Below are positions 1,203 through 54,739 of a stretch of DNA of 64,000 nucleotides, one piece after another. The stretch covers positions 1-64,000 of the forward strand of contig NZ_FNQB01000007.1 in NCBI RefSeq assembly GCF_900107455.1. The letters are read 5' to 3'. The first letter of the stretch is position 1, and the number at the start of each line of letters is the position of its first letter. The stretch comes from Asanoa ishikariensis. GTDB lineage: Bacteria > Actinomycetota > Actinomycetes > Mycobacteriales > Micromonosporaceae. Position numbers and translations under genes: made by a program. The notes under the pieces were generated by a model. It searched no databases. It was not told the origin of the DNA and saw only the letters and a program-made list of their open reading frames with translations.

Positions 1203-1248
1203 CGCCGCTCCCGATGGTGCGCGGAGGCGCGCGACCGGCCGGGCGCGG

Positions 1249-2217: not shown

Positions 2218-2220
2218 CGG

Positions 2221-39668: not shown

Positions 39669-40715
39669 TCAGTCGGACAGGCCCAGTAGGCGCAGGGCGT
39701 TGGCCGCGTACACCTGGGTCAGGACTTCCGTCGGGAGGTTGACGGCGGAGATGTCCCAGCGGCCCTGTGGCGGGATCGGACAGCCCGGGGCGTACGGGAA
39801 GCACTCGTCCTCGGTCTCGAGGAAACGCCAGTAGACCTCGTACGCCGCCCGGCCGGGTGGGAAGGCGTCCGAGCCGAACAGGACGCGGTCCGGGTGGGCC
39901 AGGATCAGGCGGCGGGTGGCGCGTGGCTGGCGGCCCAGTTCGGCCAGCCGGCCGCCCAGGTCGACGTGGAAGTTGGGGTGGCGGGTCAGCATGCCGTCGA
40001 CCCAGCCCAGGTCCTCAGCCGCGCAGCCCACGTGCGCGCCGATGAACGTCGTGCCCGGTGCGGCCGCCACCACCGTCTCCAGCGCGGTCATCAGGCGGTC
40101 GAACGTGGGATAGCCGGGTGCCCCGAACCACCACGAAGGGTTCTCCGCCAGCTCCTCCCACCGCTCGTTGCGGGCGTCGAGCGGCGCGAAGAACGCGATC
40201 GGGTCCGCGGTGTGGATGAGGATCGGCAGGCCCAGCTCCCCCGCCGCCGCGAACACGTCGGTCAGGCGCGGGTCGTCCGGCAGCACCTTCGCGCCGGTGT
40301 CGTCGGTGACGGTGAGGCCGAGGTCCTTCCACACCTTGACCCCTCGGGCTCCGGCGTCGCGAGCGCGGCGCAACGAGGCGATCAGCGCGCCGGCCGGGTC
40401 GGGGCCGTGCAGCAGCGACCAGTCGAGATGGCAGAAGGTCACGAAGCGATCGGGATGGACCGCGTCGAGGCGCGCGATGTTGGCCGATAGCTCGGCGTCC
40501 CAGCGGCCGTCGAGGTTGACGATCGTGCGGACGCCGACCTCGTCCATCAGGTCGATCAGCGCGGGCACATCGGGCACGAGCCAGTCGCCGTCGCCCAGCC
40601 AGCGGCCGAGGTGGTTGTGCGCGTCCACGGCGGGCACCGCCGCCCGCGGCACATGGGTCGACGGGCGACGGATGGCCGGCACCGGCGCGTAGTCGCGCAG
40701 CCGCAGATCCGTCAT
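39669..40715 (-). CDS. Amidohydrolase family protein (amidohydrolase_2 type)
   Basis: 348 residues. Metal-dependent TIM-barrel signatures: HxH motif in VDAHNHLG, Lys in GVKVWKDLGL, His in LPILIHTAD, His in TTFIGAHVGC and Asp in RVLFGSDAFPPG. The family includes decarboxylases, lactonases and amidases; the exact reaction is not readable. ATG 40715 overlaps the GH4 stop as ATGA, making it the fifth and last gene of the DUF4832-GH4 operon. A lactonase-like or other sugar-acid step fits that setting but is only inference. Confidence 0.82.
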   Translation of the reverse strand: MTDLRLRDYAPVPAIRRPSTHVPRAAVPAVDAHNHLGRWLGDGDWLVPDVPALIDLMDEVGVRTIVNLDGRWDAELSANIARLDAVHPDRFVTFCHLDWSLLHGPDPAGALIASLRRARDAGARGVKVWKDLGLTVTDDTGAKVLPDDPRLTDVFAAAGELGLPILIHTADPIAFFAPLDARNERWEELAENPSWWFGAPGYPTFDRLMTALETVVAAAPGTTFIGAHVGCAAEDLGWVDGMLTRHPNFHVDLGGRLAELGRQPRATRRLILAHPDRVLFGSDAFPPGRAAYEVYWRFLETEDECFPYAPGCPIPPQGRWDISAVNLPTEVLTQVYAANALRLLGLSD

Positions 40716-41998
40716 GCGCGCAGTCCTTCGGGCAGGAGGTCGCCGTGCGCCGAGGTCAAGGCGTCGCACAGGTCCCAGATCGCGTCCACCGTCAGCGAGG
40801 CGGCGGTGTTGGGGTCGACCATCGCGGCCTGGCGGACGAAACGCGGGTCCCCGGTGACCGCAGCCTCGACCGTGAGCTCGCCGACGCTGACGTAGGGCCG
40901 GTTGACCGCGGCTAACTGCACCGGCAACGAGCCGACCGGCGAGGGTCGGGCGCCCGTGCCGTCGACGGTCGTCGGCACCTCGACCGCGAACCCGGACGGC
41001 AGGTTGTCGATCAGGCCGCGGTTAGCGACGTTTGCGACGATCCGGCGCGGTGTGCCCGTCACCATGCTGTGGATGACCTGCGGTGCGTACTCGGTGGTGT
41101 CCCGCGACAGGTCGACCTCGGCAACGCCGTCCCGGGTCGCTGCATACGAAGCCAGGTTGGCCTCGCTGACCGCCAGGTACTCCCCCACCGGAATGCGCAG
41201 CCGCGAGATCTCCGTGTCGTGGCGCAGGTACCAGGGCACGTACTCGGCGGAGTGCTCGCTCGTCTCGGTCGGGTAGTAGCCGAGCCTGCGGTACAGGTCC
41301 ACGCGTACGCGCCGGCGAAGTTGAGGATCGCGAGCGATTGCCGCGTCGAGCAACGGGTAGAGGTCGACGCCGTCCCGTTCCCAGCGCAGGATCCACGCCT
41401 GGTGGTTGACGCCGGCACTCTCGAACCGGACCTCTTCGAACGGCACGTCGACGAGGGAGCAGAGGCCCTGCACGGTCCAGTAGACCGAGTGGCACAGGCC
41501 GAGCACCTTGAGCTGTGGTGCGATCCGGGCCAGGTACGTGATGTTCATGGCCATCGGGTTGGTGTAGTTCAGCAACCATGCGTCCGGACAGAGCGCGGCC
41601 ATATCGGCGGCGATGCCGGCCAGCACCGGGAACGTCCGCAGACCCCTGAAGATGCCGCCGATGCCGATCGTGTCGCCGATCGTCTGGCGCAGGCCGAACC
41701 GGGCCGGCACGTCGAAGTCGACGCGGGTGGCCGCGTACATGCCGACCTGGATGGAGTTGATGACGAAGTCGGCGCCGTCGAGAGCGGCGCGGCGGTCGAG
41801 GGTGGCGACGATCGACGGCCGGACACCGTACGCGTCGGCGACGCGGCCGGCGAGCGCCTCGGCGGTCGCGAGCCGCTCCGGGTCGATGTCGTGCAGCACG
41901 ATCCGCGCGTCGGCGAGCTCAGGGAAGCCGAGGATGTCGACGAGCAGCTCGCGGGTGAAGACGACGCTGCCCGCGCCGAGGAAAACGATGGTTGTCAT
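40712..41998 (-). CDS. GH4 family alpha-galactosidase/6-phospho-glycosidase
   Basis: 428 residues. The N-terminal NAD-binding strand TIVFLGAGSVVFTRELLVDI and the Mn-binding motifs NYTNPM and GLCHSVYWT are those of MelA-type GH4 enzymes; SAGVNHQAW supplies the metal His. GH4 enzymes cut glycosides by an NAD-dependent redox-elimination route in the cytoplasm. MelA-like spacing suggests alpha-galactosidase or alpha-glucuronidase-like activity. It lies 40 bases after a DUF4832 gene and overlaps the amidohydrolase gene. With the GH36 enzyme across the locus it suggests alpha-galactoside use. Confidence 0.88.
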   Translation of the reverse strand: MTTIVFLGAGSVVFTRELLVDILGFPELADARIVLHDIDPERLATAEALAGRVADAYGVRPSIVATLDRRAALDGADFVINSIQVGMYAATRVDFDVPARFGLRQTIGDTIGIGGIFRGLRTFPVLAGIAADMAALCPDAWLLNYTNPMAMNITYLARIAPQLKVLGLCHSVYWTVQGLCSLVDVPFEEVRFESAGVNHQAWILRWERDGVDLYPLLDAAIARDPQLRRRVRVDLYRRLGYYPTETSEHSAEYVPWYLRHDTEISRLRIPVGEYLAVSEANLASYAATRDGVAEVDLSRDTTEYAPQVIHSMVTGTPRRIVANVANRGLIDNLPSGFAVEVPTTVDGTGARPSPVGSLPVQLAAVNRPYVSVGELTVEAAVTGDPRFVRQAAMVDPNTAASLTVDAIWDLCDALTSAHGDLLPEGLRA

Positions 41999-42038
41999 GC
42001 CTGTCCTCCGAAAACGACGCGGGCAGCGCCTGATGTGC

Positions 42039-43067
42039 CTACTGGAAAGAGAAGTGGTCGATGGTGATGGTCGAGGTGCCGCCGTACCAGAAGCCCATGG
42101 CGAGCTGCGAGGGCGAGTTGCGGTTGATGCCGTTGGCCGCCATGGGAATGCGGATGTCCTGATAGCTGGTCGTGATGACCGGGTGGGCACCGCCGTCCAA
42201 AGTGAAGTCCGCGAACAGCTTCGTCGACCCGCCGAGGCCGAGGTTGAAGCGGTTCTGCTCTCCCCCGGCCGCACCCTTGATGCGCACGACCAGATAGGTC
42301 CGCGAGCTCAGGTCGACACCGACGTCGGAGCCGAACCAGCCACAGTTGTTGTAGCGCAGGCTCAACGCCCCACCCGTGACCACGCCGGCGCCACCGCCGT
42401 CCAGGAAGCAGTTCCCACCCGTCCACTTACCCAGATCATTCGTGGAGGGGTACGCCGGTGTCCCGTCGAAGTTGTCCAACACCAGCCCTGTCGGCGGTGG
42501 TGGAGTCGCGTCGGTGGTTACGGCGACCGCATTGCTGGCCACCGAACGGTTCCCGGCCGCATCCCGCGCCTTGACCGTGTACGAGTAGGCCGTCGAGGCG
42601 GTCAGACCCGTGTCGGTGAAAGACGTCCCGGCCGGGCTGCCGACCAACGTCACACCCCGGAACACCTCGTACCCGGTCACGCCGACGGTGTCCGTCGAAC
42701 CCGTCCACGAGAGCGAGACCGTGGTGTCGCTCTTCGAAGGCGACGACAGCGTCGGCGCACTCGGCGCGGTGCAGTCGCCCGAACACCCGCTCGTGGTCCC
42801 CGACGCCGTCGCCGACAGACCAGACTGATTGCCCGCGGCATCGACCGCCCGCACCTGGTACTGGTACGTCTGTCCCGGCGAACGTCCGGTGTCCGTGAAC
42901 GAGGTGCCCGTCGGCGAACCGGCCAGCACGCCGTTGCGCCACACCTGGTAGCCGGTAACGCCCACGTTGTCGGTGGCGGCCGACCACGACAGGGACACGC
43001 TCGTGTTCGTCACCCCCGACACCGCGAGCCCGGACGGCACCGACGGCGCGGTGCAGTCACCCGTGCA
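42039..43067. repeat. 1,029-bp direct repeat, copy A (FN3-FN3-CBM module)
   Basis: This segment codes for the C-terminal 342 residues of its gene and is nearly identical in DNA to 44555-45583, with equal length and no net insertion or deletion. Differences are scattered, mostly single bases. Both copies stay in frame. The start boundary is the CTGDCTAPSVPSG stretch. Confidence 0.85.
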
Positions 43068-44543
43068 CGACCCGACGGTCACCGAGTTGGCCAGGACGTT
43101 GTAGCCCTTGGTCGCGTCCCAGGTGCCGGTGTTCGCCAGCCGCACGGAGTAGGCCGGCCGGCTCTGGAGCGCGGCCACCGGGTCGGGCAGCCACAGAGCC
43201 AGCTTGTACGTGCCCGCGACCGCACCACCGGGAACGGTGACGCCGCCGGTGACAGTGCTCGCGCCGGCCAGCCAGGTACGCGGGTCGACGCCGGACAGCG
43301 GCAGGTTGTAGCGCTGCGTCCCGTTGTCGAGCACGAGATAGACCTGCCGGGTCTTGACGAGCCCGGACCAGCCGTCGTTGGACAGGTGCGCGGTGACGCT
43401 CAGACCGCCACCGGGTGCGACGGTCGTCGGGAAGGTCGCGTCGAGCAGCCTGAGCCGATAGCCGAGCTTGCGCTTGATGCGGACAAAGCAGGTCTCGGCC
43501 GGGTCGTTGCCGCTGGCGGCGAGGTTGGCCGCCTTCCACTTGTCGGTGTTGACCGCCGCGTAGTCCTCGTTGATCTCGGTGAAGTTGAGCTTCTGCATCT
43601 CGGACTGCGCGTTGACGCACGCGGCGTCGTTGTAGCCGTCGGCGCCGCACGTCTCGCCGCCGACCATCTTGTTGTGCCCAGCCGAGGTGGCCAGGTCGTA
43701 CATCCACTGCTTCTTCTGCTCGATGTAGTACCAACCCATCCAGGACGGGTTGTCGTAGGTGCCCATGTCGTTGTAGTCGGCCAGGAAACAGTCGTTGTGG
43801 AAGCCGATCCGGTCCTTCTGCGCCTGCGTCAGGTTGCACCCGCCCGGCACGACACACGAGGTGGGATCGACCACCTCCTTGATGTAGATGGGGTAGCGCA
43901 TCGCGAGCGGGATGGTGGCTGGGGTGGTGTCGGCGATCCGCTTCATGATGCGGTAGCGGGCCGGCGCCTCCTCGACCGACGACGGGTTGGTCAGCCCGCC
44001 GGTGTGCCACTCGCCCCACGCGCCGAGGTAGCCGGTCTCCAGGTGCAGGACCACGTCGGCGTTGGCGGTGATGACGGCGTTGAGCTGGCTGATATGCGCC
44101 AGGATCTGCGCCTCGTCGACGCTGACATAGCCGTCCCAGGTGTACGCGGGCCGCAGCACGGCCTTCATGCCGGCCGCCCGGACCGCCGCGAGGCCCGATG
44201 CGAGATTGTCCAGCAACGCCTGCGGCAGGGCCTGCGTCCTGTACTTGTCGAGGTGGACATAGCTGTGGATCAGCGTGTTGCCGTTGTTCCTGGCCCGAGT
44301 AAAGGTCCGGTCGAGCAGGTCCGGGTTGAAGCCAGGAATGGTGGCGGCGTTGACGTAGTCGTTGACAGCCGGGTCGTTGATGATCTCGTAGCGGTTGTGG
44401 TAGCCGCGTTCCGGGTTGGCGACCGCGGAGGCCAGATCCGCCTGGTAGGTCACGGTGGCGGCCTGGGCCGGCGCGGCACCGATCGCCACCGTTGCCGTGA
44501 GCACCGTGCCCACGGTCAGCACCCGCAGGGTGCGAGCGAACAT
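42039..44543 (-). CDS. Secreted DUF4874/DUF4832 protein with two FN3 domains and a carbohydrate-binding-like module
   Basis: 834 residues. Signal peptide 1-28 (ends APAQA). DUF4874-like part has NPERGYHNRYE and a first barrel strand set with HLETGYLGAWGEWHTGG near 185-205; DUF4832-like part has RIGFHNDCFLADYNDMG. FN3 domains lie at about 497-585 and 592-680, each with NTSVSLSWSA- and VTGYEVFR-type strands. The last 145 residues are a beta-sandwich (VLDNFDGTPAY to the end), probably carbohydrate-binding. Expected outside the cell; activity unknown. The GEWHT Glu is a candidate catalytic residue. The last 342 residues are almost duplicated in the next gene. Confidence 0.85.
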   Translation of the reverse strand: MFARTLRVLTVGTVLTATVAIGAAPAQAATVTYQADLASAVANPERGYHNRYEIINDPAVNDYVNAATIPGFNPDLLDRTFTRARNNGNTLIHSYVHLDKYRTQALPQALLDNLASGLAAVRAAGMKAVLRPAYTWDGYVSVDEAQILAHISQLNAVITANADVVLHLETGYLGAWGEWHTGGLTNPSSVEEAPARYRIMKRIADTTPATIPLAMRYPIYIKEVVDPTSCVVPGGCNLTQAQKDRIGFHNDCFLADYNDMGTYDNPSWMGWYYIEQKKQWMYDLATSAGHNKMVGGETCGADGYNDAACVNAQSEMQKLNFTEINEDYAAVNTDKWKAANLAASGNDPAETCFVRIKRKLGYRLRLLDATFPTTVAPGGGLSVTAHLSNDGWSGLVKTRQVYLVLDNGTQRYNLPLSGVDPRTWLAGASTVTGGVTVPGGAVAGTYKLALWLPDPVAALQSRPAYSVRLANTGTWDATKGYNVLANSVTVGSCTGDCTAPSVPSGLAVSGVTNTSVSLSWSAATDNVGVTGYQVWRNGVLAGSPTGTSFTDTGRSPGQTYQYQVRAVDAAGNQSGLSATASGTTSGCSGDCTAPSAPTLSSPSKSDTTVSLSWTGSTDTVGVTGYEVFRGVTLVGSPAGTSFTDTGLTASTAYSYTVKARDAAGNRSVASNAVAVTTDATPPPPTGLVLDNFDGTPAYPSTNDLGKWTGGNCFLDGGGAGVVTGGALSLRYNNCGWFGSDVGVDLSSRTYLVVRIKGAAGGEQNRFNLGLGGSTKLFADFTLDGGAHPVITTSYQDIRIPMAANGINRNSPSQLAMGFWYGGTSTITIDHFSFQ

Positions 44544-44554
44544 GATGCTCTCCC

Positions 44555-45583
44555 CTACTCGAAGCTGATGTGGTCGATGGAGATGGTGGAGTTGCCGCCG
44601 TACCAGAAGCCCATCGCGAGCTGCGACGGCGAGTTGCGGTTGATCCCGTTGGCCGCCATCGGGATCCGGATGTCCTGATAGCTCGTGGTGATGACCGGGT
44701 GGCCGCCACCGTCCAACGTGAAGTCGCCGAACACCTTGGTGGAGCCGCCGAGCCCGAGGTTGAAGTGGCTCTGCTCCCCGCCGGCCGCACCCTTGATGCG
44801 CACGACCAGATAGGTCCGCGAGCTCAGGTCGACACCGACGTCGGAGCCGAACCAGCCACAGTTGTTGTAGCGCAGGCTCAACGCGCCACCCGTCACTACT
44901 CCAGAACCACCACCGTCGAGGAAGCAGTTCCCACCCGTCCACTTATTCAGATCATTCGTGGAGGGGTACGCCGGGGTGCCGTCGAAGTTGTCCAACACCA
45001 GCCCGGTCGGTGGCGGCGTCGCGGCGTTGGTGGTCACCGTGACCGTGTTGCTGGCGGCGGACCGGTTGCCGGCCGCGTCGCGAGCCTTGACCGTGTACGA
45101 GTAGGCCGTCGAAGCGGTCAGACCGGTGTCGGTGAAGGACGTCCCGGTCGGGCTGCCCACCAACGTCGCACCGCGGAACACCTCGTACCCGGTGACACCG
45201 ACGCTGTCCGTCGCGCCCGTCCACGAGAGCGAGACCGAGGTGTCGGTCTTCGCGGGCGACGACAGCGTCGGCGCGCTCGGTGCCGTGCAGTCGCCCGAAC
45301 ACCCGCTCGTGGTCCCGTTCACCGTCGCCGACAGACCGGACTGGTTGCCCGCGGCGTCGACCGCGCGCACCTGGTACTGGTACGTCTGCCCAGGCGAACG
45401 GCCGGTGTCCGTGAACGAGGTGCCGGTCGGCGAACCGGCCAGGACGCCGTTGCGCAGCACCTGATACCCGGTCACACCCACGTTGTCGGCGGACGCCGAC
45501 CACGACAGGGACACGCTCGTGTTCGTCACCCCCGACACCGCGAGCCCGGAGGGCACCGACGGCGCGGTGCAGTCACCCGTACA
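44555..45583. repeat. 1,029-bp direct repeat, copy B (FN3-FN3-CBM module)
   Basis: This is the partner of 42039-43067, in the same orientation and at the 3' end of the neighbouring gene. The high DNA identity argues for recent duplication or gene conversion within the operon. Confidence 0.85.
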
Positions 45584-47215
45584 CCCGCCGGTGGTCATGC
45601 TGCCGAGGTTGACCCAGCCGTCCGTGCCCTGGTTGGCGTTGGCGAACGACAGCGGCAGAGCCGGCCGCCACTGGTCGATGATCCAGTCGGTGAGCCGGCT
45701 GGCGGCCGGACGCGCGCGCAGCACGTCGGCCGTCACGGTTTCGAGGGGGTTGCGGACCTTCAACACCAGGCTGTACGAGCCGGCGGGCACACCGGCCGTG
45801 CTGAGGTTCGCGGAGAAGTTGACCGGGCGGCCGAAGTCGAGATAGGTCGGGTCGCCGCCCACGTTCCAGTCGGGGAACGCCCGGATCCGCAACGGCTGCA
45901 CCTGCCGCAGGTCCCAGCTCGTGTCCCAGGTCTTGACGATCGCCCCGGACGCGTTGCGCAGGCCGATGACCGTCGTCCACGGGTAGTAGAACGGCGCCAC
46001 ACCGTTGTTCTGCATGGTGACGCCGACCTTGAACGTACCCGAGGCGCCGCTGTTGAAGTTGGCCTGCGGGATGTGCAGGTTGTAGCCCATCTTGCGGACG
46101 CCGGCGGAGACCTTCGCGTCGCCGGTGCTGTAGCCGCCGGCCCCGGTCTGGTTGATCATCCAACTGATGTGGGTGAGCTCGGTCGCGGCGAGCACGTCGT
46201 CGACCTGGCCCGAGCCGCCGGGCCAGTTGGCGTACAGGCTGCCCTGGATCTCGGGCCGGGCCTCGCCGCCGATCGACTGGGTGACCCACCGGTTCTCGGT
46301 GCCGGTGTTGAGCTGCAACTGGAGGAACGCGTCGTCCCAGCCGTTCATCGAGACGGGCAGGGTCATGCCTTTGAGCGCGTTGCCGCGCCATTCCTTGTAC
46401 GGCCAGGAGTCGTCGTGGAAACCGATGTTCGCGTTCTCGGTGCCGGCCAGCGGGTAGCGGACCTCGAGCTGGATGTTGTTGAAAGCCGTGTCGAAGGCAC
46501 CCATCAGCGTGCGGATGGTGGTGTCCGTGGGCATCAGGTTGGGGTAGCCGTCGGCCAGGTCGCGGTCGTAGGGCCAGGTGTGCCACTCACCCCAGAGGCC
46601 GACCAGGCCCATCGTCATGAACCCGATGCGCGGGTCCGCGGTGCCGCCGGGACCGGCCCGGTCGTAGCGGTTCGCGAAGGCATTGATGAAGCTGGTGAGC
46701 GCCGCGATGACGTCGGGGTCGTCGTAGTCCGGGCTGACGGTGCCCCAGAAGCCGTTGGTACGCAACGCCATCTTGCCGTTCAGGCACGGCGGGATGCCGT
46801 TGCCGGGGTGCGTTCCGCTGCCGCCGGGATACTCGACGTAGAACCGGAAGGCGACCTGGCGGCCCCAGACGGCGGCTTCGTCGAGCGCCTTCTCGAAGAC
46901 GCTCCAGTCGAAGACCGAGCAGCTACTGGGGTCCTTCATCACCTCGTTGAGGGCGAAGTAGCTCCAGACGAGGCCGCCGGGATACTTCGCGCCCAGGTTG
47001 TCGCCGGGGAACAGGTAGGGAGCGAAGCCCTTGAGCGGTTGCCCGAGCGGGGCGTCGGCGTAGGTGTAGGAGTGGGTGGCCAGGCTCGTGTCGGGACCGG
47101 GGCCGGCCGGCGGGCGGGACGGTGGGCCCGCCGGCGCGGCGACCGCGGTGCTCGACGCCAGCACCAGGGTGAGCACCGCGGCGCTGGTGACGAGCAGCTT
47201 GCGTAGTGATGCCAT
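44555..47215 (-). CDS. Secreted DUF4832 protein with two FN3 domains and a carbohydrate-binding-like module
   Basis: 886 residues. Signal peptide 1-26 (LLVTSAAVLTLVLASSTAVA). The catalytic-like region (about 45-540) has LGQPLKGFAPYLFPG, FRFYVEYPGG, GLVGLWGEWHTWPYD, NIGFHDDSW and a C-terminal beta domain with KVGVTMQNNGVAPFYY and NFSANLSTAG. FN3 repeats at about 549-637 and 644-732 and a final binding module follow, shared with the downstream gene. An upstream in-frame GTG is a weaker start. It resembles the third gene (47269-48633) more closely in its N-terminal part than it does the first. Confidence 0.85.
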   Translation of the reverse strand: MASLRKLLVTSAAVLTLVLASSTAVAAPAGPPSRPPAGPGPDTSLATHSYTYADAPLGQPLKGFAPYLFPGDNLGAKYPGGLVWSYFALNEVMKDPSSCSVFDWSVFEKALDEAAVWGRQVAFRFYVEYPGGSGTHPGNGIPPCLNGKMALRTNGFWGTVSPDYDDPDVIAALTSFINAFANRYDRAGPGGTADPRIGFMTMGLVGLWGEWHTWPYDRDLADGYPNLMPTDTTIRTLMGAFDTAFNNIQLEVRYPLAGTENANIGFHDDSWPYKEWRGNALKGMTLPVSMNGWDDAFLQLQLNTGTENRWVTQSIGGEARPEIQGSLYANWPGGSGQVDDVLAATELTHISWMINQTGAGGYSTGDAKVSAGVRKMGYNLHIPQANFNSGASGTFKVGVTMQNNGVAPFYYPWTTVIGLRNASGAIVKTWDTSWDLRQVQPLRIRAFPDWNVGGDPTYLDFGRPVNFSANLSTAGVPAGSYSLVLKVRNPLETVTADVLRARPAASRLTDWIIDQWRPALPLSFANANQGTDGWVNLGSMTTGGCTGDCTAPSVPSGLAVSGVTNTSVSLSWSASADNVGVTGYQVLRNGVLAGSPTGTSFTDTGRSPGQTYQYQVRAVDAAGNQSGLSATVNGTTSGCSGDCTAPSAPTLSSPAKTDTSVSLSWTGATDSVGVTGYEVFRGATLVGSPTGTSFTDTGLTASTAYSYTVKARDAAGNRSAASNTVTVTTNAATPPPTGLVLDNFDGTPAYPSTNDLNKWTGGNCFLDGGGSGVVTGGALSLRYNNCGWFGSDVGVDLSSRTYLVVRIKGAAGGEQSHFNLGLGGSTKVFGDFTLDGGGHPVITTSYQDIRIPMAANGINRNSPSQLAMGFWYGGNSTISIDHISFE

Positions 47216-47268
47216 GAACCGTGTTCCCTTCGGGACGGAGTTAGGAACAGGTGCGGGGGTGCGTGCCG

Positions 47269-48633
47269 TCAGCGGGTCGTGACGGCACCGAGGTGCAGCC
47301 AGCCGGACTGGTTGTCCTGACCGGTGTTCGCGAACCGCAACGGGATGCCGTTGCGCAGCGGGTTGGGCACGCGCAGGACGATGTCGTAGCTGCCGCGCCG
47401 CAGGCCGTGGGTGTTGATCCGGGTGCTCAGCAGCGTCGGGTCCTGGCCCGGCTGGATGCCCGCCACGGACCACGGGGTGTGCCAGCGCTTGACGATGCGG
47501 CCCCGGCTGTCGACCGCGGCGAGCTCGGCGGGCCAGTCGTAGTAGAACGGCGCGGCGCCGCGGTTGGCCACTTTGACGGAGACGCGGTCGCGGGACAGCG
47601 CCGCCTGGGTGACGGTCAGCTCGTAGCCCAGCGACCGGGACGCGGCCAGCGCGCGGGCCTTGTTGTCGCCGTCGTAGCCTTCGCCGGCGAACGCCGCGTG
47701 GTTGATGAGCCACGACGCGTGGGTCCGCTCGACCGACTCCGCGTAGTCCTCGTACTGGCCGCAGCTCACCGGCTGGTCCCACAGGCACGACTGGATCTCG
47801 GGTCGCAGCTCCCCGCCGATGGGCTCCTGGCGCCACTTCTCGGTCACGCCCTCGTCGATCAGGCGCTGCACGAAGTGCCACGACTGGTTGGGCAGCGTCT
47901 CGAAGGCGAACGAGTCGTCGTGGTAGCCGATGCCGAGGCTCTTGTTCTCGGGGCTGGGATAGCGGGCCAGCAGCCTGGTCTCGTCGAACGCGGCCTCGTA
48001 GCTGCCGAGCACGCGGGACAGCACGTCGGTGCCGGGCATCCAGTTCTCCGGCTGGGTCCAGCCGTCGTACGGCCAGGTGTGCCACTCACCCCAGAAGCCG
48101 ACCAGGCCCAGGGTGATGAACCCGATCCGCGGGTCGCCGTCGTACCGCCGGCCCAGCGCGCTGATGAAGCTCTCCAGCGCCGAGACGAGCCGTGGGTCGG
48201 TGTAGTCCGGCGAGACGCTGACGCCGTTGTTGCCGAAGTCCGGGTACGGGCGGGTGACCAGGCCCTGGTCCAGCAGGTACTGCGGGATGCCGGTCGGCTT
48301 GCCGGGATAGTCGAGGTAGAACCGGAACACCGCCTGGTGGCCGCGCGACGAGATGTCGTCGAGCTGCTGTTCGAGCGCGTCCCACCGGAACTTCTTCGGC
48401 CCGGTCATCACGTCGTTCAGCGGCAGGTAGAACCACTCCATGCTGTACGGGAAGGTCTCGTAGCTGCCGGCGTACGGCAGGAAGCCCTTGAGCGGGTTGT
48501 CGGCGGGCGCGGGTGCGTAGGCCAACTGCGTCCACTGTGGATGTGATGGTGGCTGGGCCACGGCGGGTGTGCCCGTGGCGAGCACCAGGCTCGCCAGCAG
48601 GGCTATGGACAGGCGCAGGGCGCGACGGATCAT
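47269..48633 (-). CDS. Secreted DUF4832 protein, catalytic-like domain only
   Basis: 454 residues from ATG 48633, which has GAGGAGG eight bases upstream. Signal peptide 1-25 (ends TPAVA-QP). The single region carries NPLKGFLPYAGSYETFPYS, VFRFYLDYPGKPTG, GLVGFWGEWHTWPYD, LGIGYHDDSFAFE and a C-terminal beta domain with SVKVANRGAAPFYYDWP. It lacks the FN3 and binding modules of its two downstream relatives. It is the first gene of the minus operon and faces the ABC transporter genes across a 109-base regulatory gap with a ROK-type site. Confidence 0.85.
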   Translation of the reverse strand: MIRRALRLSIALLASLVLATGTPAVAQPPSHPQWTQLAYAPAPADNPLKGFLPYAGSYETFPYSMEWFYLPLNDVMTGPKKFRWDALEQQLDDISSRGHQAVFRFYLDYPGKPTGIPQYLLDQGLVTRPYPDFGNNGVSVSPDYTDPRLVSALESFISALGRRYDGDPRIGFITLGLVGFWGEWHTWPYDGWTQPENWMPGTDVLSRVLGSYEAAFDETRLLARYPSPENKSLGIGYHDDSFAFETLPNQSWHFVQRLIDEGVTEKWRQEPIGGELRPEIQSCLWDQPVSCGQYEDYAESVERTHASWLINHAAFAGEGYDGDNKARALAASRSLGYELTVTQAALSRDRVSVKVANRGAAPFYYDWPAELAAVDSRGRIVKRWHTPWSVAGIQPGQDPTLLSTRINTHGLRRGSYDIVLRVPNPLRNGIPLRFANTGQDNQSGWLHLGAVTTR

Positions 48634-48662
48634 GATCGCGGCCTCCTCGGCAGCTTCTGAAG

Positions 48663-48687
48663 TAATACGAAGAGGTGTTGACAAAAT
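48663..48687. promoter_or_regulatory. Bipartite operator ATTTTGT-N11-CGTATTA, divergent promoter copy
   Basis: Read on the minus strand it is ATTTTGT, 11 bases, CGTATTA; on the plus strand TAATACG, 11 bases, ACAAAAT. The same two half-elements with identical spacing occur at 53509-53533 before the ROK gene. It overlaps the -35 of the candidate MalF promoter and lies 30 bases from the DUF4832 start, so one bound regulator could control both operons. Confidence 0.65.
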
Positions 48688-48708
48688 TCCGAAGGTCTAC
48701 ATCATTAT
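48678..48708 (+). promoter_or_regulatory. Candidate promoter of the sugar ABC transporter operon
   Basis: TTGACA at 48678-48683 and CATTAT at 48703-48708 with a 19-base spacer, 52 bases before ATG 48761. The region is clearly AT-rich compared with its surroundings. The -35 lies inside the ROK-type site, which fits repression. Confidence 0.45.
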
Positions 48709-48760
48709 TCGAGAACGGGGCGGCTGGCAAGAGCCAGGCGAGATGGATCAGAGGCGATCT

Positions 48761-49639
48761 ATGAAGACGAAACGGCGCGACGACCGTCGAGCGGCGTGGT
48801 GGTTCCTGTTACCGGTGCTGGTGGGCTTCGCCGTCTTCTACGGCTACCCGGCCATCCGCGGCGCCTGGTACTCGGTCACCGACTACACGATGCTCAACCA
48901 GCCCTCGTTCGTGGGCGCGGACAACTACACGGAGCTCGCCCGCGACGGCGAGTTCTGGCACTCGCTCCTGGTCACCGTCTGGTACGTGGTCCTCAACATC
49001 GGCTCACAGACCCTGCTCGCGCTGGGCGTCGCGTCGCTCATGCACCGGCTGACCCGTTCGACGGTGCTGCGGGCCGCGTTGCTGCTGCCCTGGCTCGTAC
49101 CCAACGTCACCGTGGGTCTGCTCTGGATGTGGCTGCTGGACACCAACCTCGGGTTCGTCAACCACCTGCTGACCTCGCTCGGCGTCGGCCCGGTCGGGTT
49201 CCTCACGGACGCGACCTGGGCGATGCCGTCGGTCGCGGCGATCAACACCTGGGCCTACACCGGCTACACCGCGCTGCTGCTGTACGCCGGGATGCTCCAG
49301 ATACCGCAGTACCTCTACGAGAGCGCCGCGATCGACGGTGCCAACGAGTGGCGGATGTTCCGGCGGATCACGCTGCCGCTGCTGCGTCCGGTCCTGGCGC
49401 TGGTGCTCGTGGTCTCGCTGATCGGCTCGTTCCAGATCTTCGACACGATCGCGGTCACCACGTTCGGCGGCCCGGTCTCGGCGACGCGGGTCATCTACTA
49501 CTTCATCTACGAGCAGGCGTTCCGGTATTTCCACATGGGCTATGCCGCCGCCGCGGCGATCTGCCTCGCGCTGATCCTCGGCGTGCTCACCGCGATCCAG
49601 ATGCGCCTGCTGCGCGCGTCCCGGTCGGACCTGGCGTAG
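48761..49639 (+). CDS. Carbohydrate ABC transporter permease (MalF/UgpA type)
   Basis: 292 residues from ATG 48761 (GAGG six bases upstream); ATG 48743 in the same frame is an alternative. Six membrane helices. The EAA loop reads YLYESAAIDGANEWRMFRRI then TLPLLRPVL, as in CUT1 sugar permeases. It forms the membrane channel with the next gene's product and takes substrate from the lipoprotein encoded third. No ATPase gene is in the locus, so a shared MsiK-type ATPase elsewhere is likely. It is the first gene of the plus-strand operon. Confidence 0.93.
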   Translation: MKTKRRDDRRAAWWFLLPVLVGFAVFYGYPAIRGAWYSVTDYTMLNQPSFVGADNYTELARDGEFWHSLLVTVWYVVLNIGSQTLLALGVASLMHRLTRSTVLRAALLLPWLVPNVTVGLLWMWLLDTNLGFVNHLLTSLGVGPVGFLTDATWAMPSVAAINTWAYTGYTALLLYAGMLQIPQYLYESAAIDGANEWRMFRRITLPLLRPVLALVLVVSLIGSFQIFDTIAVTTFGGPVSATRVIYYFIYEQAFRYFHMGYAAAAAICLALILGVLTAIQMRLLRASRSDLA

Positions 49640-49649
49640 GGGGCCTCGC

Positions 49650-50534
49650 ATGCGTACCCGAAATCTGAGTGCCGGCCGGGTCTTCGCCTGGATCGCGATG
49701 ATCACGTTCCTGGTGGTCACGATCTTCCCGTTCTGGTGGATGGTCCGCACCGCGCTCACGCCGGCCGGCGACCTGTTCACCGACAACGCCGGGTTGCTGC
49801 CACACGACCCGACGTTCATCAACTTCCTCCGGGTGCTCGGCCTGACCACCGAAGCCGAGGCCCGCGCCGCCGGCGGTTCCGGCGCGAAGATCGACTTCGC
49901 CCGGTACCTGCTCAACTCGATCATCTACTGCGGACTGATCGCCGGGTTCCAGACGCTGTTCTGCGCGATGGCCGGCTACGCCTTCGCCCGGCTGCGTTTC
50001 CCCGGTCGCGACGCGGTCTTCGCGATCCTGATCGCCGCCCTGATGGTCCCGCCGATCTTCACGCTGCTGCCCAACTTCATCCTGGTCAAGGACCTCGGTC
50101 TGATCAACACGATGGCCGGCATGGTCGCGCCCACGATCCTGATGACGCCGTTCGCGGTGTTCTTCCTGCGCCAGTTCTTCCTGTCGCTGCCGCGCGACGT
50201 GGAGGAGGCGGCGATCCTCGACGGCAACGGCCCTTGGGGCATCTTCTGGCGGATCGCGCTGCCGATGAGCCGCGGCCCGCTGATCACCATCGGGCTGACC
50301 ACGATCGTGTGGGCCTGGAAGGACTTCCTGTGGCCGCTGCTGGTCGGCCGCGGCGAGGACAACCGCCTTGTCACCGTCGCGCTCGGCGTGTTCCGCCAGC
50401 AGTCGCCCAACACCGCACCGGACTGGACCGGCCTGATGGCCGCCTCGACGCTCTCGGTCCTGCCGGTCCTGATCCTGCTGGTCTTCATGGGCAAGCGCCT
50501 GGTCCAGTCACTGAACTTCACCGGTAGTAAGTGA
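49650..50534 (+). CDS. Carbohydrate ABC transporter permease (MalG/UgpE type)
   Basis: 294 residues, six membrane helices. The EAA loop is DVEEAAILDGNGPWGIFWRI followed by ALPMSRGPL; the preceding VFFLRQFFLSLP is typical of MalG-like CUT1 permeases. ATG 49650 lies 10 bases after the previous stop. A periplasmic-side loop near residues 45-85 with LTTEAEARAAGGSGAKIDFA is longer than usual. It pairs with the MalF-like protein to import an oligosaccharide, probably an alpha-galactoside judging by the linked hydrolases. Confidence 0.93.
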   Translation: MRTRNLSAGRVFAWIAMITFLVVTIFPFWWMVRTALTPAGDLFTDNAGLLPHDPTFINFLRVLGLTTEAEARAAGGSGAKIDFARYLLNSIIYCGLIAGFQTLFCAMAGYAFARLRFPGRDAVFAILIAALMVPPIFTLLPNFILVKDLGLINTMAGMVAPTILMTPFAVFFLRQFFLSLPRDVEEAAILDGNGPWGIFWRIALPMSRGPLITIGLTTIVWAWKDFLWPLLVGRGEDNRLVTVALGVFRQQSPNTAPDWTGLMAASTLSVLPVLILLVFMGKRLVQSLNFTGSK

Positions 50535-50589
50535 TCACTAACCAGCAAGCGAGTGAGCGATTACCAACCCGCAGAGAGAGAAGGACGAG

Positions 50590-51951
50590 ATGATCCGCAG
50601 ATCACGCGCCGGGGCAGCTCTGCTGTCCTTGGCGATGGCCGCCGGCCTGGCCGGCCTGGCCGCCTGTAGTGGCGACGACTCCGGCGACGGGGCCGACGGC
50701 GCCGTGACGCTGGACTACTGGCTGTGGGACGACAACCAGAAGGCGTCGTACCAGGCCTGCGCCGACGCGTTCCACACCTCGAACCCGAACATCACGGTCC
50801 GGATCACGCAGTCGGCGTGGGACCAGTACTGGCAGAACCTGACCACCCAGCTCGCCGCCGGCGAGGCGCCCGACGTGTGGACCAACCAGGGCTCGTACTA
50901 CCCGCAGTTCGTCACCTCGGGTCAGATCCTCGACCTCCAGCCGTACGTCAAGGCCGACAACGTCGACCTGTCGCAGTACCAGGGCGGCCTGGCCGACCTG
51001 TTCGTCAAGGACGACGCCCGTTACGGGCTCCCGAAGGACTGGGACACCATGGCCCTGGTCTTCAACACCGACCACCTCAAGGCCCAGGGCGTCGACGCGG
51101 CTTCGCTGAAGGACCTGACCTGGAACCCGACCGACGGCGGTACGTTCGAACAGCTCATCGCCAAGGCCACTGTGGACGCCAAGGGCAAGAACGGGCTGGA
51201 CCCCGCGTTCGACAAGTCGAAGATCAAGACGTTCGGCTTCCTGCCGGAGTTCAAGGACGGCTCGCAGGGCCAGAACGGCTGGGGCAACTTCGCCGCCTCG
51301 CTCGGCTTCACGTACCTCGACAAGAACCCGTGGGGCACGCAGTACAAGTACGACGACCCGCGGCTGGCCCAGGTGATCGACTGGTACAAGTCGCTGATCG
51401 CCAAGGGCTACAGCCCGGCGCTGGACAAGGCCTCCACGCTCGCCAACGACGCGCTGATGAACGCGGGCAAGGGCGCCATCACCATCACCGGCTCCTGGAT
51501 GATCAACAGCTACCTCGGTGACACCGCGAAGGTGAAGTTCGCGTTCGCACCGCTGCCGGCCGGTCCGCAGGGCCGCAAGTCGGCGATCAACGGCCTGTCG
51601 GACGCGATCTGGACGGGCACCGAGCACAAGGACGAGGCCTGGAAGTGGGTCAAGTTCCTCGCCTCCCCCGACTGCCAGAACATCGTCGGTGGCAACGCCG
51701 TGGTCTTCCCCGCCCTCAAGGACGCCAGTGAGAAGGCGCTCGACGCCCACAAAGCCAAGGGACGCGACGTGCAGGCGTTCATCGACGAGGCCTCGGCACC
51801 CGGCGGCACGTTCTTCCTGCCCATCACCGACCACGGCAGCGAGGTCAGCCAGATCGTGCAGGACGCGATCCAGTCGGCCGTGCTCGGCCAGACCGACTCG
51901 GCCTCCGCGCTGAAGAAGGCCAACGACCAGGTCAACGCGCTCTTCAAGTAG
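50590..51951 (+). CDS. Sugar-binding lipoprotein of the ABC importer
   Basis: 453 residues. The signal peptide ends with lipobox L-A-A-C (Cys about residue 26). The mature protein is a family 1 extracellular solute-binding protein: VTLDYWLWDDNQKAS, EAPDVWTNQGSYY, YGLPKDWDTMALVFNTD and a late GKGAITITGSWMI. It would capture the oligosaccharide outside the membrane and deliver it to the two permeases encoded upstream. ATG 50590 follows GAGAAGGACGAG. The 55-base gap before it holds no obvious extra signal. Confidence 0.93.
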   Translation: MIRRSRAGAALLSLAMAAGLAGLAACSGDDSGDGADGAVTLDYWLWDDNQKASYQACADAFHTSNPNITVRITQSAWDQYWQNLTTQLAAGEAPDVWTNQGSYYPQFVTSGQILDLQPYVKADNVDLSQYQGGLADLFVKDDARYGLPKDWDTMALVFNTDHLKAQGVDAASLKDLTWNPTDGGTFEQLIAKATVDAKGKNGLDPAFDKSKIKTFGFLPEFKDGSQGQNGWGNFAASLGFTYLDKNPWGTQYKYDDPRLAQVIDWYKSLIAKGYSPALDKASTLANDALMNAGKGAITITGSWMINSYLGDTAKVKFAFAPLPAGPQGRKSAINGLSDAIWTGTEHKDEAWKWVKFLASPDCQNIVGGNAVVFPALKDASEKALDAHKAKGRDVQAFIDEASAPGGTFFLPITDHGSEVSQIVQDAIQSAVLGQTDSASALKKANDQVNALFK

Positions 51952-52012
51952 CCCAACCGGTGCGGCGGGGCGCCCTGGCCCCGCCGCACCTCTCACCTCG
52001 CCGAGGAGAACA

Positions 52013-53500
52013 ATGGCACTGCTGATCGAGCTGGCCGGGCGCACCTTCGCCCTCGAACACGACGGCACCGGCAGCCCGCAAGCAGCCGACGGGGGTCTGA
52101 TCCTCCCGCCCGGACGCGTCGCACTGTTGCACGGACTGGGCGACGCCCTGTTCTACCGGCACGGGCAGAACTCCTGGAGCCCCTGCGGATGGCGGCGGCT
52201 GAGCGAGCCCCCGCTGCGCATCGCCAACCCGCAACGACGCGTCACGGCCGACGACGACGTCTGGGACGACCCGGCCCGCCACCACTCCTCCGCCGTGGCC
52301 GCGCTCGACACCGGCGACGGCAACGTCCTGCTGCTCGGCGCGCTCGGCCTGGGCACGCCCCGGCTGACGGCCGACCGCGACACCCTGGCCGGCTGGTACG
52401 AGCGCGGTGCGTCACCGTGGTTCGCCGCTTACGGCCCTGAGGAAGAGGTGTTCGCCGCGTACACCCGGCACCTGGCGGCCAGGCTCGGCAGCAGCACCCG
52501 CCGGGCGGGCAACGTCTGGTGCTCCTGGTACGCGTACTACGAGACCATCACCGAGCAGCAGCTCGCCAAGGACATCAACGACCTGCGCGGCCTGCCGTTC
52601 GACGTCGTGCAGATCGACGACGGCTGGGAGCGGCTCGTCGGCGACTGGCAGCCCAACCACAAGTTCCCGTCGGGCATGCGGGCGCTGGTCGACCGCATCA
52701 CCGACGTCGGCATGGTGGCCGGACTGTGGCTGGCCCCGTTCATCGCCCTGCCCTCGGCTGGCGTCCCGCGGTCGCTCCTGCTGCGCGACGCCCGGGGCGA
52801 CCTGGTGATCGCCGGGCACAACTGGGGCACCGGCTACCACGCCCTGGACCTGTCCCGCTCTGACACCCTCGACTATCTCGGCTCGCTGATCGACCGGGTG
52901 GTCCACGAGTGGGGATTCCGCTATCTCAAACTCGACTTCATCAATGCGGGAGCGGTCCCTGGGGTACGTCTTGACGACGCCGAGCGGGAACAGACGTACC
53001 GTGATGCCCTCGCCCTTGTGCGCCAGGTCGCCGGTGACGACGTCTATCTGCTCGGCAGCGGCGCGATCCTGCTGCCGTCCCTGGGGATCCTCGACGGGCT
53101 GCGCAGCGGACCCGACGTGGCGCCGATGTGGCAGAACTACGCGAGCGACGACCCGTCCGACGCGATGGCCCGCAACGCCGTGGTCAACACGCTGCACCGG
53201 CTGTGGCACCAGCCGGTGGTCGAGGTCGACCCCGACGTCATCTACTTCCGCAGCCGGCTCAACCTGCTCACCGACCAGCAGCTCGCGTGGCTGCGGGACC
53301 TGGCCGACGTGAGCCGGTTCCGGGCCGTGTCCGACCCGCCGAGCTGGCTGACGCCCGGCGAGCTCGACGACATGCGGACGTACCTGTCGACGCGACCGGA
53401 GATCCGGCGGTTGAGCCGCTACGAGTACACGATCGACGGGCGGGCCGCCGACTTCACCGGCGCCGTTAGTCCCGCGGCGGCCGCGTACCCCATCTCGTGA
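52013..53500 (+). CDS. GH36 family alpha-galactosidase
   Basis: 495 residues, cytoplasmic (no signal peptide). An N-terminal beta domain is followed by a TIM barrel with NVWCSWYAYYETI, VVQIDDGWERLVGDW, GLWLAPFIA, and the nucleophile Asp in RYLKLDFINAGAV. The segment GILDGLRSGPDVAPMWQNY should hold the acid/base Asp. The protein is shorter than classical GH36 (about 700), closer to the compact subgroup seen in thermophiles and actinobacteria. It would release galactose from the imported oligosaccharide. ATG 52013 follows GAGGAGAACA, and the gene ends 69 bases before the ROK gene. Confidence 0.88.
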   Translation: MALLIELAGRTFALEHDGTGSPQAADGGLILPPGRVALLHGLGDALFYRHGQNSWSPCGWRRLSEPPLRIANPQRRVTADDDVWDDPARHHSSAVAALDTGDGNVLLLGALGLGTPRLTADRDTLAGWYERGASPWFAAYGPEEEVFAAYTRHLAARLGSSTRRAGNVWCSWYAYYETITEQQLAKDINDLRGLPFDVVQIDDGWERLVGDWQPNHKFPSGMRALVDRITDVGMVAGLWLAPFIALPSAGVPRSLLLRDARGDLVIAGHNWGTGYHALDLSRSDTLDYLGSLIDRVVHEWGFRYLKLDFINAGAVPGVRLDDAEREQTYRDALALVRQVAGDDVYLLGSGAILLPSLGILDGLRSGPDVAPMWQNYASDDPSDAMARNAVVNTLHRLWHQPVVEVDPDVIYFRSRLNLLTDQQLAWLRDLADVSRFRAVSDPPSWLTPGELDDMRTYLSTRPEIRRLSRYEYTIDGRAADFTGAVSPAAAAYPIS

Positions 53501-53508
53501 GGGTTGCT

Positions 53509-53533
53509 ATTTTGTAAAGGTCAAAGCGTATTA
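53509..53533. promoter_or_regulatory. Bipartite operator ATTTTGT-N11-CGTATTA, ROK promoter copy
   Basis: ATTTTGT at 53509-53515 and CGTATTA at 53527-53533, exactly as at 48663-48687. It lies 36 bases before the GTG of the ROK gene in an AT-rich pocket between GH36 and ROK, where autoregulation would act. Confidence 0.65.
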
Positions 53534-53569
53534 GCGCGGGCCCACCGCGCTCAGGAAAAGGGATGCAAC

Positions 53570-54739
53570 GTGACAGAACTGGCGACGACCGGCGCGGACC
53601 TGTCGCGGCTGCGTGAGCTCAACTCGCTGAGCATCGTGCGTGCGCTGCGGCAGCACCCACCGTCGACCGTCACCGAGCTGTCGCAGCGCACGGGACTGTC
53701 CCGGCCCGCCGTCGACGTCATCGCCCAGGGGCTGGTCACGGACGGTTGGGCCAGCGTGATCGAGCCCGGAGCGAGCAGCGCGGTCGGCCGGCCGGCACGC
53801 CGCTACCAGTTCCGGGCGGACGCCGGCCACGTGCTCGGCGTCGACGTCGGCGCCCACAAAATACTGGCGCTGCTGGCCGACCTCGACGGCAACATCGTGC
53901 AGACGGTGCGGCACTCCGTCTCCCCGGATGCAGGGCCGGAAGAGCGGCTCGCCGAGCTCGACAGCGTCATCAACGCGTGCGTGTCCGAGGCCGGCAAGTC
54001 GTTCGGCGACATCTGGGCGGTGACGGTCGCGGTCACCGGTGCCGTCGACGCGGCTGGGCAGACCAGCTTTTTCACCCCCCTTCCCGGTTGGCAGCAGGTC
54101 AACCTGGCCAGCCATCTGGGTGCCCGGTTCACCTGCCCGATCCTTGTTGAGAACGACTGTAAGTTGGCAGCGTTGGCCGAGCGTTGGAAGGGCGCGGCCC
54201 GCGACGCGGACGACATCGTCTATCTGCTGGCCGGCATGCGCAACGGCGCTGGCCTGATCATCGATGGCGTGCTGCGCCGGGGTTTCGGCGGCGCGGCGGG
54301 CGAAATCGGTGCGCTCAAACAGGTTCGGTGGCTGAACGCGCCGGAGCACCTGCAGAACTGCCCGGGAGTGCCATCCACCGTCAGCCCCGACGACGCGGCG
54401 GCATGGGTGTTCAACGCGGCCCGCTCCGGCAACCGGGCGGCGCGGGCCGCGGTCAACCGCTACGTCAAGGACCTGGCCGTCGGTGCCGCCGCGCTCGTAC
54501 TCACGCTCGACCCGCAGGTGGTTATCTTCGGCGGCGGCTTCTCGCGTTCGGCGGACCTCGTGCTAGACCCGCTGCGCAACGAGCTCGAGCGGTTGTGCAT
54601 TCGCCTGCCAGAAGTCCGCGCCTCGACGCTCGGCGCGGACTCCGTGGCCCTTGGCGCGTTGAAGCTGTCGCTCAACGAGGTGGACGACCGGTTGTTCAGC
54701 GCTGGGCTTTCCGCTCCGGTCGCCCCCCGCCGTCAGTAA
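53570..54739 (+). CDS. ROK family transcriptional regulator
   Basis: 389 residues from GTG 53570 (GGAAAAGGGA upstream). The MarR-like helix-turn-helix is NSLSIVRALRQHPPSTVTEL, then SQRTGLSRPAVDVIAQGLV. The ROK sugar-kinase-like part has VLGVDVGAHKILALLADLDG, VTVAVTGAVD, ILVENDCKLAALAE and GFGGAAGEIGALKQ. The Cys-x-Cys-Gly-x-x-Gly-Cys zinc motif is replaced by HLQNCPGVPS, so metal binding seems lost. It probably binds the two ATTTTGT-N11-CGTATTA sites and responds to a sugar made from the imported glycan. Confidence 0.9.
   Translation: MTELATTGADLSRLRELNSLSIVRALRQHPPSTVTELSQRTGLSRPAVDVIAQGLVTDGWASVIEPGASSAVGRPARRYQFRADAGHVLGVDVGAHKILALLADLDGNIVQTVRHSVSPDAGPEERLAELDSVINACVSEAGKSFGDIWAVTVAVTGAVDAAGQTSFFTPLPGWQQVNLASHLGARFTCPILVENDCKLAALAERWKGAARDADDIVYLLAGMRNGAGLIIDGVLRRGFGGAAGEIGALKQVRWLNAPEHLQNCPGVPSTVSPDDAAAWVFNAARSGNRAARAAVNRYVKDLAVGAAALVLTLDPQVVIFGGGFSRSADLVLDPLRNELERLCIRLPEVRASTLGADSVALGALKLSLNEVDDRLFSAGLSAPVAPRRQ

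What the first reader, a model, noticed from the sequence alone, without database searches (positions are those of the whole stretch)
39669..54739. A complete, regulated glycan-use locus with three secreted DUF4832 proteins of unknown activity
A minus operon (three secreted DUF4832 proteins, GH4, amidohydrolase) faces a plus operon (MalFG-type permeases, binding lipoprotein, GH36, ROK). GH4 and GH36 both point to alpha-galactosides. All three DUF4832 proteins share G-x-W-G-E-W-H-T and I-G-(F/Y)-H-(D/N)-D motifs, each with invariant acidic residues, and two carry FN3 and binding modules like those of glycosidases. They may be undescribed extracellular glycoside hydrolases that release the oligosaccharide the transporter takes up.
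Basis: partly seen in the sequence, partly recalled or inferred. Interest (0 to 1): 0.75.

Follow-up and report, generated by a model that had tools for sequence, protein, structure and literature searches.

The report
Probable α-galactan scavenging locus, DUF4832 enzymes
A soil actinobacterium carries three secreted proteins of a barely studied family that look like sugar-polymer-cutting enzymes, next to a sugar importer and two α-galactosidases; similar pairings recur in several bacterial phyla, so they probably break down an α-galactose-containing polymer for food.

The parts
39669..40715 (-). Amidohydro_2 protein, no signal peptide seen, role unknown
   Evidence: Pfam 80 bits; start; no PDB relative at E<=0.01; tblastn matches in L018, L040, L044, L046, L050, L069 of 111 loci, several of which are too short to tell
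40712..41998 (-). GH4 alpha-galactosidase-type protein, no signal peptide seen
   Evidence: NCBIfam PRK15076 550.8 bits over cut-off 486; Pfam GH4
42039..44543 (-). DUF4832 protein 1: signal peptide, DUF4874+DUF4832 catalytic half, two FN3, C-terminal module
   Evidence: Pfam; start and motifs; acids E150, D223, E269 invariant in 16 of 16
44555..47215 (-). DUF4832 protein 2: signal peptide, barrel-type half + DUF4832 domain, two FN3, C-terminal module
   Evidence: Pfam; start and motifs
47269..48633 (-). DUF4832 protein 3: signal peptide, barrel + DUF4832 domain only
   Evidence: Pfam; AlphaFold2 model pLDDT 94.3, pTM 0.92
48085..48087 (-). codon of E157 (mature numbering) of protein 3, the GEWHT Glu after barrel strand 4, candidate catalytic acid
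   Evidence: invariant 57 of 57, 209 of 209; strand positions
47914..47916 (-). codon of D214 of protein 3 (IGYHDD), barrel strand 6
   Evidence: invariant 57 of 57, 208 of 209
47809..47811 (-). codon of E249 of protein 3 (GGE), barrel strand 7, candidate catalytic base or nucleophile
   Evidence: invariant 57 of 57, 209 of 210
48664..48711 (.). nearly invariant 48-bp block between the two operons, probable shared promoter/operator
   Evidence: MAFFT of the window and 5 other Micromonosporaceae loci; an 18-base piece has no other site in the genome at up to 2 mismatches
48761..49639 (+). ABC sugar permease 1 (start may be 48743)
   Evidence: BPD_transp_1 64 bits
49650..50534 (+). ABC sugar permease 2
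   Evidence: BPD_transp_1 71 bits
50590..51951 (+). sugar-binding lipoprotein (LAACSG lipobox read from the sequence)
   Evidence: SBP_bac_1 98 bits; PDB relative 5k2x, 119 bits
52013..53500 (+). GH36 alpha-galactosidase-type protein, no signal peptide seen
   Evidence: Melibiase 41.6 bits; 6lcj alpha-galactosidase 349 bits
53504..54739 (+). ROK-family transcriptional regulator with N-terminal HTH
   Evidence: Pfam ROK 140 bits + HTH

Best explanation
This is a nutrient-scavenging locus for an alpha-galactose-containing polymer. Three secreted DUF4832 proteins are TIM-barrel glycoside hydrolases, probably of different specificity, two of them carrying FN3 and C-terminal modules that may hold the substrate; they cut the polymer outside the cell (fold and residues supported by prediction and conservation; activity inferred). 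The fragments are caught by the binding lipoprotein and imported by the two permeases, powered by an ATPase encoded elsewhere (inferred). Inside, GH36 and GH4 alpha-galactosidases release galactose (inferred from family). A ROK regulator next to the GH36 gene probably controls both operons through the conserved intergenic block (inferred). The likeliest chemistry is hydrolysis of alpha-galactosyl or alpha-galactosaminyl bonds, with E157 as acid and E249 as partner; the substrate may resemble Pel or fungal galactosaminogalactan.
Against: No activity is shown for any protein here. 30 of 79 loci lack an alpha-galactosidase match at 100 bits; 14 of these (L096, L098, L099, L101-L111; MAGs of Spirochaetales, archaea, deltaproteobacteria, Myxococcota, planctomycetes and others) show no transporter either, and neighbours scanned in five of them are unrelated to sugar use, so the family also works in other settings. 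5 of 14 Micrococcales-order loci show none of the partners tested. GH31 and GH36 are distantly related (25% over 158 residues; clan GH-D, recalled), so the swap is weaker evidence than two unrelated folds would be. The own genome has two PelF-family glycosyltransferases over the model's cut-off elsewhere, so recycling of self-made polymer is not excluded. No GalNAc-specific gene was recognised among the ten, which fits galactose better than Pel's GalNAc. Deleting SIR_1591 gave no aggregation phenotype. Protein 1's model is poor. SIR_1591 was not aligned with these proteins. Relatedness of genomes makes the Fisher value (2.7e-25) an overstatement.
Confidence: 0.72

Rival explanations
1. The locus uses ordinary plant alpha-galactosides (galactomannan side chains, raffinose-type sugars); DUF4832 proteins debranch or trim these.
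For: GH36 and GH4 both fit melibiose- and raffinose-type substrates by family; nearest named relatives are actinobacteria of soil-dwelling genera (habitat recalled).
Against: Small plant alpha-galactosides need no secreted depolymerase; no mannanase was recognised among the ten genes; DUF4832 relatives sit in pel-type and galE polysaccharide clusters.
Confidence: 0.2
2. The DUF4832 enzymes are beta-galactanases (their barrel also resembles GH35, GH42 and GH5), and the alpha-galactosidases only remove alpha-Gal caps from the released oligosaccharides.
Confidence: 0.1
3. The locus serves turnover of the bacterium's own Pel-like matrix (dispersal and recycling), not feeding on foreign polymer.
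For: SIR_1591 and the Paenarthrobacter relative lie in biosynthetic clusters; the own genome has two PelF-family matches over cut-off.
Against: Those PelF matches are on other contigs (C2, C4), and that model also rings over its cut-off in 1 of 14 control genomes; the locus has importer, intracellular alpha-galactosidases and a sugar-type regulator but no synthesis gene among its ten.
Confidence: 0.12
4. The DUF4832 proteins are non-catalytic carbohydrate-binding or structural proteins.
For: FN3 and a putative binding module in two of three; one Cohnella paralogue (L076) has Ser at the E249 site, so some members may be inactive.
Against: Conserved acids at barrel strand ends; a family member disrupts polymer aggregates.
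Confidence: 0.04

Closest known systems
SIR_1591, DUF4832 hydrolase of the Streptococcus intermedius pel operon (PMC12345266; passages seen)
   Different: Lies in a polysaccharide biosynthesis operon; acts on GalNAc-rich Pel; its sequence was not compared here
GH14 beta-amylases
   Different: No Pfam GH14 match; 10-13% identity in the aligned core; partners are alpha-galactosidases
ABC-transporter glycan-use loci of actinobacteria with a ROK regulator (type recalled)
   Same: Binding lipoprotein, two permeases, intracellular exo-glycosidases, ROK regulator, no own ATPase
   Different: Three secreted DUF4832 proteins as the depolymerising arm
GH31 alpha-galactosidases (8j50-8j53 by sequence; human MYORG, PMC9491548, passages seen)
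   Same: Stand in the place of GH36 beside DUF4832 in Anaerolineae, a Bacteroidetes MAG, Paenibacillaceae and a Herbinix MAG
   Different: Not in this window; specificity of the bacterial ones for alpha-1,4-galactobiose is recalled, the paper was not held

Membership tests
Pfam DUF4832 (PF16116) | score over the curated cut-off of 29.2 bits | tested here: met
   166.6, 33.4 and 32.6 bits for proteins 1-3
Pfam DUF4874 (PF16173) | score over the curated cut-off of 30.1 bits | tested here: inconclusive
   protein 1 met (104.8); protein 2 below (20.4); protein 3 no match
Glycoside hydrolase (any) | hydrolysis of a glycosidic bond | not testable with these tools
   inferred from fold, conserved acids, context and SIR_1591
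Glycoside hydrolase with (beta/alpha)8 barrel | barrel with conserved carboxylates at strand ends | tested here: met
   protein 3 model, matches, conserved E157, D214, E249; protein 1 model too poor, protein 2 not modelled
GH14 beta-amylase | sequence match to the family | tested here: not met
   no GH14 match for proteins 1-3 in Pfam at E 1e-3; fold resemblance only
GH4 alpha-galactosidase (PRK15076) | score over curated cut-off 486 | tested here: met
   550.8 bits
GH36 (Melibiase PF02065) | score over curated cut-off 27 | tested here: met
   41.6 bits; 349 bits to 6lcj
Pel biosynthesis locus | pelF and partner genes beside the hydrolase | tested here: not met
   none among the ten genes; PelF-family matches over cut-off are on other contigs
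Complete ABC importer operon | ATPase gene in the operon | tested here: not met
   no ABC ATPase match among the ten genes

The most novel reading that the evidence does not exclude
DUF4832 proteins form a family of 'galacto-amylases': beta-amylase-like, possibly inverting enzymes that release alpha-1,4-galactobiose or larger alpha-galactosyl(galactosaminyl) oligosaccharides, used both to trim Pel-type matrix at home and, in bacteria of several phyla, to eat such polymers of other microbes or fungi, with a GH36 or a GH31 alpha-galactosidase, sometimes joined by a GH4, as the finishing enzyme.
Probability: 0.3. Interest if true: 0.82.

Novelty: new variant of a known kind. Interest (0 to 1): 0.6.

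Why it matters
If right, it gives a function, candidate catalytic residues and a substrate class to a widespread, barely annotated family, and joins two settings: matrix-polysaccharide (Pel-type) operons and nutrient-uptake loci. It would show that alpha-linked galactose or galactosamine polymers, usually discussed as biofilm glue, are food for soil bacteria, and would offer new enzymes that cut them. The prediction can be tested with three secreted proteins.

Tried and rejected
A sequence search of solved structures with a 57-sequence profile of protein 3 gave no relative (19 rows, best E 0.048, 17 of them one unrelated toxin component by chance, 2 a release factor; not followed). The full-length model of protein 1 was poor (pLDDT 62), probably for its shallow 16-row alignment, so fold claims rest on protein 3 and on profile comparison; protein 2 was not modelled. 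The Gfo/Idh/MocA gene of one recurring cluster (10 loci) was considered as a possible GH109 alpha-GalNAcase, but the member tested matched dehydrogenases. No inverted repeat of 8 or more bases was found in the intergenic region; a search for the block elsewhere found one 3-mismatch site. The C-terminal module has no Pfam match in the window's two copies; a Cohnella version touches CBM30 and CBM11 below cut-off. The nine DUF4832 genomes without the GH36 (of 42) include seven with matches of 217-232 bits, the range of another subtype; of two such loci scanned one sits by a sugar transporter (L131) and one by beta-lactamase-like and P450 genes (L130); a third (L132) was fetched but not scanned. 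Paper searches: DUF4832 4 papers, DUF4874 1 (passages of three seen, PMC6258164 only listed); no held paper on GH31 alpha-galactosidases and galactobiose that fits; searches on galactosaminogalactan and Pel with soil gave listings only.

Rows dropped and biases: one search kept the best 80 of 94 relatives (79 loci), and records near the window's genome may be left out by the tool. For A1, 55 of 79 loci were chosen by eye for diversity, plus proteins 3 and 2 of the window. A first family-wide check (19 of 19 for all three acids) picked the frames of some loci by the WGE motif and so dropped four loci (L112, L113, L118, L119); one search repeats it without that filter on 137 loci: 215 stretches in 134 loci, 209 covering E157; exceptions are Ser at D214 in L119 and Ser at E249 in one L076 protein; L114-L116 gave no hit. 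The loci overlap in origin, so these counts are not independent. Outside the Glu, the GEWHT motif varies (for example GEHHV in Treponema). Of 14 genomes with a protein-3 relative among 396 of the order of L071, 8 hold an alpha-galactosidase nearby (one of them L071, already counted), 1 a pel-type cluster, 5 neither (one, L152, at a contig end); some may be the same organisms as.
Full report
What is there. Minus strand: three secreted DUF4832 proteins, a GH4 and an Amidohydro_2 protein. Plus strand: two sugar permeases, a binding lipoprotein, a GH36 and a ROK regulator. The nearest named relative of protein 3 is from Asanoa hainanensis (91-92%), whose locus L069 holds matches to all ten genes, so the host is probably an Asanoa species (inference). 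A Pfam search finds only these three DUF4832 genes in the 9.09-Mb genome.

The enzymes next door. The GH4 passes NCBIfam's alpha-galactosidase model (550.8 bits, cut-off 486). The GH36 is over Pfam's Melibiase cut-off and is closest among solved structures to an alpha-galactosidase, 6lcj, at 349 bits. I see no signal peptide on either. None of the ten genes is an ABC ATPase; many actinobacteria share one ATPase among such importers (recalled).

The acids. The three are invariant in 57 of 57 protein-3-type sequences (protein 2 included) and their counterparts in 16 of 16 protein-1-type sequences. In a check over 137 loci that did not select by motif, E157 is kept in 209 of 209 covered stretches, D214 in 208 of 209 and E249 in 209 of 210, while H212 and D213 vary; the set reaches an E. 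coli plasmid protein at about 25% identity. Profile comparison aligns the same three sites of proteins 1 and 3 (98.6-99.0% probability). Protein 1's own model is poor.

The genomic link. In 150 genomes of the window's family, own genome counted, 42 have DUF4832 and 33 have the GH36 ortholog at E 1e-100 or better. All 33 are among the 42, and in all 33 the two genes are 4,112-4,629 bases apart. Of 79 public loci with protein-3 relatives, 49 hold an alpha-galactosidase at 100 bits or more (36 GH36, 13 GH31; the GH4 only ever comes with a GH36), 51 a sugar transporter at 80 bits or more, 48 both. Chance would give about 0.02 per 21 kb from the 8 Melibiase and GH4 matches of the own genome (GH31 not counted). 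GH36 stands in Micromonosporaceae, Streptosporangiaceae, Kribbella and four Micrococcales loci; GH31 in Anaerolineae, a Bacteroidetes MAG, Paenibacillaceae and a Herbinix MAG (family names recalled). The two GH31 proteins tested are closest to a solved GH31 alpha-galactosidase (449 and 463 bits). GH31 and GH36 are distantly related, so this is replacement by another family, not by an unrelated fold; it still argues that the DUF4832 product carries alpha-galactose. One Anaerolineae locus (L081) also has galactose-1-phosphate uridylyltransferase. In the order of L071, 14 of 396 genomes have a protein-3 relative: 8 with an alpha-galactosidase nearby, 1 with a pel-type cluster, 5 with neither.

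What does not fit. 30 of 79 loci have no alpha-galactosidase match: six actinobacterial loci (four Dactylosporangium, two at contig ends), six Cohnella loci (all six with a solute-binding protein of another type), four assorted MAGs and 14 MAG loci of Spirochaetales, archaea, deltaproteobacteria, Myxococcota, planctomycetes and others. In five of these last, the neighbours I scanned include UvrB and ArsP_2 and no sugar enzyme. Plasmid-borne relatives in Treponema and Actinomyces also lie among unrelated genes. The family clearly has other settings.

The Pel link. PMC7112168 names DUF4832 as an accessory gene of pel loci in Streptococci and Clostridia (passages). PMC12345266 reports that recombinant SIR_1591 disperses aggregates of a GalNAc-rich polymer that alpha-1,4-N-acetylgalactosaminidases also disperse; deleting the gene gave no aggregation phenotype (passages). 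PelG was not recognised there by Pfam or NCBIfam. A distant DUF4832 gene lies in an E. coli plasmid glycosyltransferase cluster beside galE. So one subfamily occurs in two settings, polymer synthesis with galE and oligosaccharide uptake with alpha-galactosidase; both point to galactose-configured, alpha-linked polymers.

Regulation. A 48-bp block (48664-48711) between the operons is nearly invariant in six Micromonosporaceae loci and suits a shared promoter-operator for the ROK regulator; no inverted repeat was detected in the region.

Judgement. Supported by computation: gene content, fold of protein 3, conserved acids, conserved pairing. Shown by others: hydrolase-type activity of one DUF4832 protein, by an aggregate-dispersal assay. 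Inferred: that proteins 1-3 are active, on an alpha-galactosyl polymer, and that the importer carries the products. Open: polymer, linkage, endo or exo action, inverting or retaining.

Noticed in passing
42039-43070 and 44555-45590: The 3' halves of DUF4832 genes 1 and 2 (two FN3 + C-terminal module) are 89% identical in DNA over 1029 bases while their catalytic halves are far less alike; in the five genomes compared, copies within a genome are about as similar as or more similar than orthologs in other genera, which suggests gene conversion of the module.
   Followed up: partly
L076:3285-8819 and 293-3211: A Cohnella gene encodes protein-1-type and protein-2-type DUF4832 regions in one frame of about 1,849 residues; a second gene nearby carries DUF4832, FN3 and an alpha-galactosidase-type CBM13-like domain and has Ser at the E249 site.
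   Followed up: partly
38344-38439: ARAGORN calls a tRNA-Ser here, overlapping a long kinase-like reading frame on the other strand; possibly a false call.
   Followed up: no
L098, L099, L101-L108: Short DUF4832 proteins in archaeal, deltaproteobacterial, myxococcal and planctomycete MAGs; no sugar gene among the neighbours scanned, role unclear.
   Followed up: no
G000:C2:1973619 and C4:1047341 (own genome, outside the window): Two glycosyltransferases over the PelF model's cut-off; whether they belong to Pel-type clusters was not checked.
   Followed up: no
39669-40715: The Amidohydro_2 protein has no PDB relative at E 0.01 and was found only in Asanoa and Actinoplanes-type loci and one family genome; role unknown.
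   Followed up: no
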